Made by a program: the position numbers and the translations under genes. A stretch of DNA of 64,000 nt from Anaerocolumna sp. (lineage in GTDB: Bacteria > Bacillota > Clostridia > Lachnospirales > Lachnospiraceae). Positions 21,290 through 21,535 of the stretch are shown here, piece by piece. Positions within the stretch are counted from its first letter, which is position 1. Each line of letters starts with the position of its first letter. The DNA is taken from positions 55,556 through 119,555 of the forward strand of contig JAQSXJ010000017.1 of NCBI GenBank assembly GCA_029256725.1, written 5' to 3'. The notes beneath the pieces were generated by a model. It made no database searches. It was given only the letters and a program-made list of their open reading frames with translations, and was not told the DNA's origin.

Positions 21290-21535
21290 CAGGTAAATTG
21301 CACAAACCAGAAGAACGAATGCGCCTATGGAAAGGTATTAGAAGTCCTTTTCTCTGAATATTTTGTGCTATATAATGAAACAGATTGTTTGAGTACACAT
21401 AGTGTACTCATGCGTAGCGAGTTATCTGTTTCATTATATGTCAAGCACAAACTATCCAGAGAATTAGGACTTCTTATACCTTGGAATTGAAGCATGAGTT
21501 TTTCTGGTTTGTGCAATTTACCGTCCCCTAGTGAA
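21290..21535. repeat. Long hairpin element, copy A (full form)
   Basis: Outer arms 21292-21312 and 21502-21522 are perfectly complementary (21 bp); internal stems ggtattagaagtcc/ggacttcttatacc, atataatgaaacaga/tctgtttcattatat and central gagtacac/gtgtactc; shares blocks with copies B and C. Confidence 0.85.

What the first reader, a model, noticed from the sequence alone, without database searches (positions are those of the whole stretch)
21290..21535. Copy A of a long hairpin element family with compensatory arm evolution
246-nt near-continuous hairpin. It shares conserved blocks with copy C (gaatgcgcctatggaaagg; attagaagtccttttctctgaa.attttgtgctatat; agcgagttatctgttt; gaattaggacttcttatNccttggaat; gaagcatgag), but its outer arms differ in sequence while staying perfectly self-complementary. 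Examples: A ggtaaattgcacaaaccag/ctggtttgtgcaatttacc versus C ggaaaaatacccaaaactg/cagttttgggtatttttcc; inner stem ggtatt/..atacc in A versus gggatt/..atccc in C; atataatgaaacaga/tctgtttcattatat versus attctaaaacaga/tctgttttagaat. Paired double substitutions mean that pairing is being maintained. Copy A also carries an extra apical hairpin (gagtacacatagtgtactc). Candidate explanations: an undescribed structured RNA, a non-autonomous hairpin mobile element (REP/IS200-like), or quasi-palindrome correction by template switching.
Basis: seen in the sequence. Interest (0 to 1): 0.85.

Follow-up and report, generated by a model that had tools for sequence, protein, structure and literature searches.

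The report
Transposon-derived long hairpin repeat family
The hairpin is one of at least 77 copies of a small transposon-like repeat that appears to have been moved by an ordinary insertion sequence, settles just behind genes, and keeps its two arms matched over time, partly because one arm is rewritten from the other.

Summary
Window 21292-21522 folds into a near-continuous hairpin (z = -16). It belongs to a family with at least 77 core matches in this genome, plus many in three of the 14 other genomes of the genus searched and traces elsewhere. Covariation is very strong: 170 two-sided changes against 32 in shuffles. It is also seen at orthologous sites: 149 two-sided changes against 41 expected.

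It is best explained as a non-autonomous, MITE-like element, not a REP/IS200 element. Well-preserved members, including window copy C, have 19-bp terminal inverted repeats and 7-8-bp target duplications. Copy C is absent at the orthologous sites of two relatives. One 1606-bp IS4-type insertion sequence in the same genome has matching ends and a TAATTTA duplication. The genome has no Y1 transposase.

The arm covariation need not mean selection on an RNA. G-U pairs are rarer than A-C mismatches, transversions are common among double changes, and several copies show a 3-nt loop rewritten as the complement of the opposite arm, the mark of template-switch correction. A transcript-level role is not excluded: copies sit about 40 bp after stop codons, mostly in one orientation (48 of 61). 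New variant of a known kind.

The parts
21253..21559 (-). Copy A, whole element (approximate ends, GGGGACGG subfamily, decayed terminal repeats)
   Evidence: Ends set by analogy with the subfamily terminal repeat GATTCAAGTGTCAAAAG; sequence. No clear target duplication: an old copy, whose orthologue in KNHs205 (L114) is interrupted by an IS110 element
21292..21522 (-). Copy A, hairpin core (GG...CC)
   Evidence: Folding; inverted repeat I1; covariation
21521..21534 (-). TCACTAGGGGACGG conserved head of the element, next to the hairpin
21543..21559 (-). Copy A relic of the 5' terminal inverted repeat (GATTGAAGGGGTAAAAG)
   Evidence: compared with the consensus
21252..21270 (+). Copy A relic of the 3' terminal inverted repeat (ATAATTTCAGCATCAAAAG, read on +)
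   Evidence: compared with the consensus
30397..30548 (-). Copy B, short-class (internally deleted) copy, 3' of galT (30564-32060, minus)
   Evidence: nhmmer; junction AAGTCCTTTCCATAGG shared with L147, L152, L156; Pfam
57928..57935 (.). Copy C target site duplication ACATTATA (left)
57936..57954 (+). Copy C terminal inverted repeat CTAGAGCCTCAAAATTTCT
57996..58208 (-). Copy C hairpin core
58228..58246 (-). Copy C terminal inverted repeat (CTGGAGAGTCAAAAGCTCT on the minus strand)
58247..58254 (.). Copy C target site duplication ACATTATA (right)
   Evidence: the site is empty in G012 and G014
21583..22455 (-). sdaAA-like gene (serine dehydratase alpha chain), whose stop codon lies about 24 bp before copy A
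   Evidence: Pfam SDH_alpha E=1.5e-77

Best explanation
Copy A is an old member of a family of non-autonomous (MITE-like) DNA transposable elements. Each full element is about 250-315 bp and consists of a terminal inverted repeat, a short unpaired flank, a 213-235 bp quasi-palindromic hairpin, a second flank and a second terminal repeat. Shown: TIRs, 7-8 bp target duplications, an empty site for copy C in two relatives, size subfamilies with shared deletion junctions, and one insertion sequence in the same genome with matching ends and duplication length. Inferred: the elements were moved in trans by the transposase of that IS4-type insertion sequence or a close relative. The resident copy carries a premature stop, so the family may be inactive now. 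The hairpin is a passenger that is probably not needed for movement, since TIR-only elements of 40-45 bp exist. Its two arms stay complementary at each locus by coordinated change. I infer that much of this comes from arm-to-arm template-switch correction during replication, with selection on the structure as a possible second force. Copies are retained mainly just downstream of genes with the GGGGACGG end towards the stop codon.
For: Family size: 77 core matches in this genome, reversed-pattern control 0; copies in G012 (Clostridium sp. KNHs205), G014 and G010. TIRs and duplications: of 25 TIR pairs (one of them the IS), 15 show an exact 7-8 bp duplication, for example TAACTATA, TAAAGGAA, TTGTTTTA, ACATTATA. 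Copy C is missing at the orthologous sites of G012 and G014. Partner: 1606-bp element G000:C85:9134-10739 with ends CTTGACAGTAAAAAGTTCT / AAAACTTTTGACTGTCTAG, duplication TAATTTA, transposase related to NCBIfam IS701_3/IS4 models and Pfam DDE_Tnp_1/DDE_5, below cut-offs; the IS4 motif Y-(2)-R-(3)-E-(6)-K is present (read). 7-8 bp duplications, 1500-1600 bp and CT ends fit the ISPepr1 subgroup of IS4 (PMC2266710). TIR-only elements: L228 (45 bp, duplication TATCCAAT), L227/L102. Coordinated arms: (170 vs 32 in shuffles); 30 non-overlapping orthologous pairs, 149 two-sided changes vs 41 shuffled, maximum 57. Arm-to-arm rewriting: L007, L155, L103 and L099 each carry a 3-nt loop change to the complement of the other arm, and at six asymmetric loop pairs 31 single-sided changes go toward complementarity vs 10 away.
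Against: The link between the IS and the family rests on 19-bp ends (2-3 mismatches) and duplication length; the IS shares no further sequence with the elements and is a single, interrupted copy. The large GGGGACGG subfamily, to which A belongs, has a diverged terminal repeat and only two clear duplications in 35 copies tested. Most asymmetric internal loops have not been rewritten, and most single-arm indels are uncorrected, so correction is not complete. The orientation bias towards upstream genes is not explained by simple transposition.
Confidence: 0.82

Rival explanations
1. The hairpin is a functional structured RNA (or transcribed 3'-UTR element) domesticated from a mobile element, for example stabilising or processing mRNA 3' ends; selection at each locus keeps the arms paired.
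For: Orthologous copies are retained between genomes whose flanking genes are about 90% identical, while downstream flanks are nearly saturated. Internal loops are conserved while stems covary. Copies sit about 40 bp after stop codons, with the upstream gene pointing at the element in 48 of 61 own copies, and sense vs antisense 30:7 between tandem genes.
Against: Single changes at orthologous copies give 82 A-C but only 27 G-U mismatches, the opposite of what a sense RNA tolerating G-U would give. Double changes include 76 transversion types against 66 transition types, so the path through G-U is not preferred. No Rfam match. No transcript data. A strand-biased mutation spectrum could distort the wobble test.
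Confidence: 0.3
2. Pairing is kept entirely by a neutral DNA process: template switching or hairpin-mediated repair copies one arm onto the other, and no function of the hairpin is needed.
For: Total events per stem site are close to those of loops; 3-nt loop rewriting into the complement of the other arm; the process is established in the literature (PMC8794818, PMC7202029).
Against: Most conserved asymmetric loops persist and most indels remain in one arm only; the family stays far more similar than flanking DNA.
Confidence: 0.4
3. A REP/REPIN element moved by a Y1 (IS200/RAYT) transposase.
For: A hairpin next to a GGGGAC(GG) head; in other Lachnospiraceae-like genomes (G018, G027) Y1 genes are surrounded by GGGGACGG repeats.
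Against: No Y1_Tnp match in this genome; TIRs and 7-8 bp duplications; length about 300 bp.
Confidence: 0.05

Closest known systems
Bacterial MITEs (Correia, ERIC and similar; review PMC10969869)
   Same: Small, non-autonomous, TIR-bounded, high copy, intergenic, foldable, sometimes affecting transcripts
   Different: Here a hairpin of more than 210 bp sits inside separate TIRs and continues to covary at orthologous sites; IS4-type ends; restricted to a few genomes of one genus and sparse relatives
IS4 family, ISPepr1-like subgroup (PMC2266710)
   Same: 7-8 bp duplications, 1500-1600 bp partner, CT ends, YREK motif
   Different: Terminal consensus matches only partly; subgroup not tested by a tree; no described MITE of this kind was found in the papers searched
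REP/REPIN with RAYT transposases (PMC2817692)
   Same: Extragenic palindrome with a conserved head, many copies
   Different: No Y1 transposase; TIRs with target duplications; roughly ten times longer
Template-switch-maintained hairpins (PMC8794818)
   Same: Compensatory changes made in one event by copying one arm from the other
   Different: Shown there on rRNA gene histories; here in a repetitive mobile element with dozens of orthologous pairs

Membership tests
MITE (non-autonomous TIR element) | Terminal inverted repeats | tested here: met
   CTAGAGAGTCAAAAGTTCT at both ends of complete elements; decayed in copy A
MITE (non-autonomous TIR element) | Target site duplication | tested here: met
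   15 of 25 complete TIR pairs with exact 7-8 bp duplications, including copy C; not visible for copy A
MITE (non-autonomous TIR element) | Presence/absence at orthologous sites | tested here: met
   Copy C site empty in G012 and G014
MITE (non-autonomous TIR element) | Autonomous partner with the same ends | tested here: met
   1606-bp element at G000:C85:9134-10739 with 2-3 mismatches per 19-bp end and duplication TAATTTA; resident copy has an in-frame TGA
MITE (non-autonomous TIR element) | Demonstrated mobilisation in trans | not testable with these tools
   Needs a transposition assay
IS4 family (partner) | YREK motif Y-(2)-R-(3)-E-(6)-K | tested here: met
   YSYRFRIECTFREFK in the translation, by inspection against PMC2266710
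IS4 family (partner) | Curated family model above cut-off | tested here: not met
   NCBIfam IS701_3 93 bits (cut-off 170), IS4_1 41 bits (115); Pfam DDE_Tnp_1 21.5 (23); both pieces are parts of an interrupted protein, so the partner is called IS4-type, not filed as a member
IS701 family (partner) | 4-bp target duplication | tested here: not met
   7 bp
REP/RAYT | Y1 tyrosine transposase in the genome | tested here: not met
   PF01797: 0 matches
REP/RAYT | No target duplication, short palindrome | tested here: not met
   7-8 bp duplications and an element of about 300 bp
Structured RNA family | Covariation beyond shuffles | tested here: met
   but relatedness is not controlled there and template switching gives the same signal
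Structured RNA family | G-U tolerated over A-C on the transcribed strand | tested here: not met
   82 A-C vs 27 G-U in sense orientation; possible mutation bias
Structured RNA family | Transcript | not testable with these tools
   No RNA data
Structured RNA family | Known Rfam family | tested here: not met
   No match at gathering score; only far-below-threshold matches

The most novel reading that the evidence does not exclude
A mobile long hairpin has been domesticated as an orientation-dependent 3'-end element for many genes in one bacterial genus, with arm-to-arm template switching acting as its upkeep mechanism.
Probability: 0.22. Interest if true: 0.75.

Novelty: new variant of a known kind. 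Interest (0 to 1): 0.52.

Why it matters
Compensatory substitutions are usually read as proof of a selected RNA. Here dozens of orthologous copies of one hairpin, most likely mobile DNA, show heavy two-sided change with no wobble signature and with visible arm-to-arm rewriting. That makes the family a natural test bed for how much covariation template switching alone can produce, and a warning for covariation-based RNA discovery. It also adds a long-hairpin type of MITE tied to an IS4-type insertion sequence.

Tried and rejected
REP/RAYT: rejected. Y1-like relics near two copies in G012 and G014 looked like a partner at first; they are IS200-type fragments beside another repeat and were dropped. 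An insertion in the apex of a G014 copy looked like an autonomous version, but it encodes an IS3/IS150-like transposase pair and is a later insertion. A 1.65-kb insertion in two KNHs205 copies is an IS110-type element in the same target site, again secondary. Pairing of the flanks outside the hairpin: not supported. Intrinsic terminator: no U-run after the hairpin, and the scan found none there.

Full report
Observation. Copy A forms a near-continuous hairpin at 21292-21522, with folding energy -124.8 against -54.5 +/- 4.3 in shuffles. Repeat search finds copies B and C in the window. Rfam has no family for it.

Family. A whole-genome search returned more than 30 near-full copies, and a core 21-mer with up to 2 mismatches occurs 77 times, against none for the reversed control. 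Of 14 other genomes in the genus, G012, G014 and G010 hold many copies, G004 and G009 traces; in a sample of 297 genomes outside the genus, two had one or two matches. A public scan named Clostridium sp. KNHs205, whose contig length identifies it as G012, and one Lachnospiraceae MAG. I extracted 147 distinct copies, 125 of them spanning both ends.

Anatomy. Read on the minus strand of the window, the order is TCACAAGGGGACGG, left arm, apex, right arm, CCTGAAATCATATGG. Outside the hairpin are diverged terminal repeats. The better-preserved ACGGACGG subfamily, to which C belongs, shows them clearly: CTAGAGAGTCAAAAGTTCT at both ends. Size classes of 181-314 bp exist, several sharing deletion junctions, and in G012 and G014 elements of 40-45 bp consist of little more than the two ends.

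Mobility. Fifteen of 25 complete TIR pairs have an exact 7-8 bp duplication. Copy C (57936-58246, duplication ACATTATA) is absent from the orthologous sites of G012 and G014. In the GGGGACGG subfamily two duplications at the same offset were found in 35 copies. Copy A itself has decayed ends and no clear duplication, and is shared with KNHs205, where an IS110-type element has broken it.

Partner. The end pattern also brackets a 1606-bp element at G000:C85:9134-10739 with duplication TAATTTA. It encodes a DDE transposase in two open pieces separated by one in-frame TGA, weakly matching DDE_Tnp_1/DDE_5 and the NCBIfam IS701_3 and IS4 models. The YREK spacing and the 7-bp duplication fit the IS4 family, and 7-8 bp with 1500-1600 bp fits its ISPepr1 subgroup (PMC2266710). 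Uninterrupted homologues up to 89% identical exist in public data. A decayed relative in G009 is about 1594 bp long with similar ends. No Y1 transposase is present.

Arm coevolution. In 39 copies, 96.2% of cells pair, 38 pairs change on both sides and 170 cells are two-sided changes, against 32 in shuffles; sliding the structure destroys this. At orthologous sites, in 30 non-overlapping pairs, both arms changed 149 times, against 41 expected from per-column rates and at most 57 in 2000 shuffles; 127 of these keep Watson-Crick pairs in both copies. So pairing is maintained at individual loci, not only in a mobile master copy. Gene conversion between paralogues could contribute, since paralogues are nearly as similar as orthologues in inner parts.

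Cause of the coevolution. Single changes give 82 A-C but 27 G-U, and double changes are 66 transition and 76 transversion types. This does not fit stepwise compensation through G-U on the sense strand. A mutation bias is visible in loops too, so the test is indicative only. Four copies carry 3-nt changes that turn an asymmetric loop into the complement of the opposite arm, and at six asymmetric loop pairs 31 single-sided changes go toward complementarity against 10 away (some of these copies are orthologues, so not all are independent). That is the footprint of template switching (PMC8794818). It is incomplete: most loops and indels are not corrected.

Placement. In the own genome the upstream gene points at the element in 48 of 61 copies; between tandem genes the orientation is sense in 30 and antisense in 7 (p = 0.0002); the median distance to the stop codon is 43 bp. 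ORF calling was mechanical. Copy A follows sdaAA, B follows galT, C follows an RpiR-type regulator gene. This bias may reflect selective retention or a transcript-level role.

Verdict. A new long-hairpin MITE family with an IS4-type partner; the covariation is real, but its cause is probably mixed and is the interesting part.

Noticed in passing
L135 4790-6440 and L114 126-1775 (Clostridium sp. KNHs205): The same IS110-type (DEDD) element is inserted at the identical site GGACTTCT/CTAATACC in two different hairpin copies, with CT at both junctions, suggesting RNA-guided targeting of the repeat.
   Followed up: partly
L069 3162-4886 (G014): An IS3/IS150-like element with TGCTTCCC...GGGAAGCA ends sits in the apex of the gatB-downstream hairpin copy.
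   Followed up: partly
L070 1750-2000, L141 and L142 near 2700-3000, and at least ten other loci: A second repeat family of about 250 bp (blocks such as GACACTTAAGTGGCAG ... TTTAGTGGAAT) lies downstream of many hairpin copies; not characterised.
   Followed up: no
L066, L067 (genomes G018, G027): Y1 transposase genes surrounded by GGGGACGG palindromic repeats: probable Firmicutes REP/RAYT systems with a GGGGAC head.
   Followed up: no
window 34702-34871 and 33332-33416: Tandem arrays with 19-bp and 17-bp periods in intergenic DNA.
   Followed up: no
L228 457-501 (G014), L227 508-547 (G014), L102 3616-3655 (G012): Elements of 40-45 bp made of little more than the two terminal repeats, one with an 8-bp target duplication: close to the smallest transposable unit possible.
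   Followed up: partly
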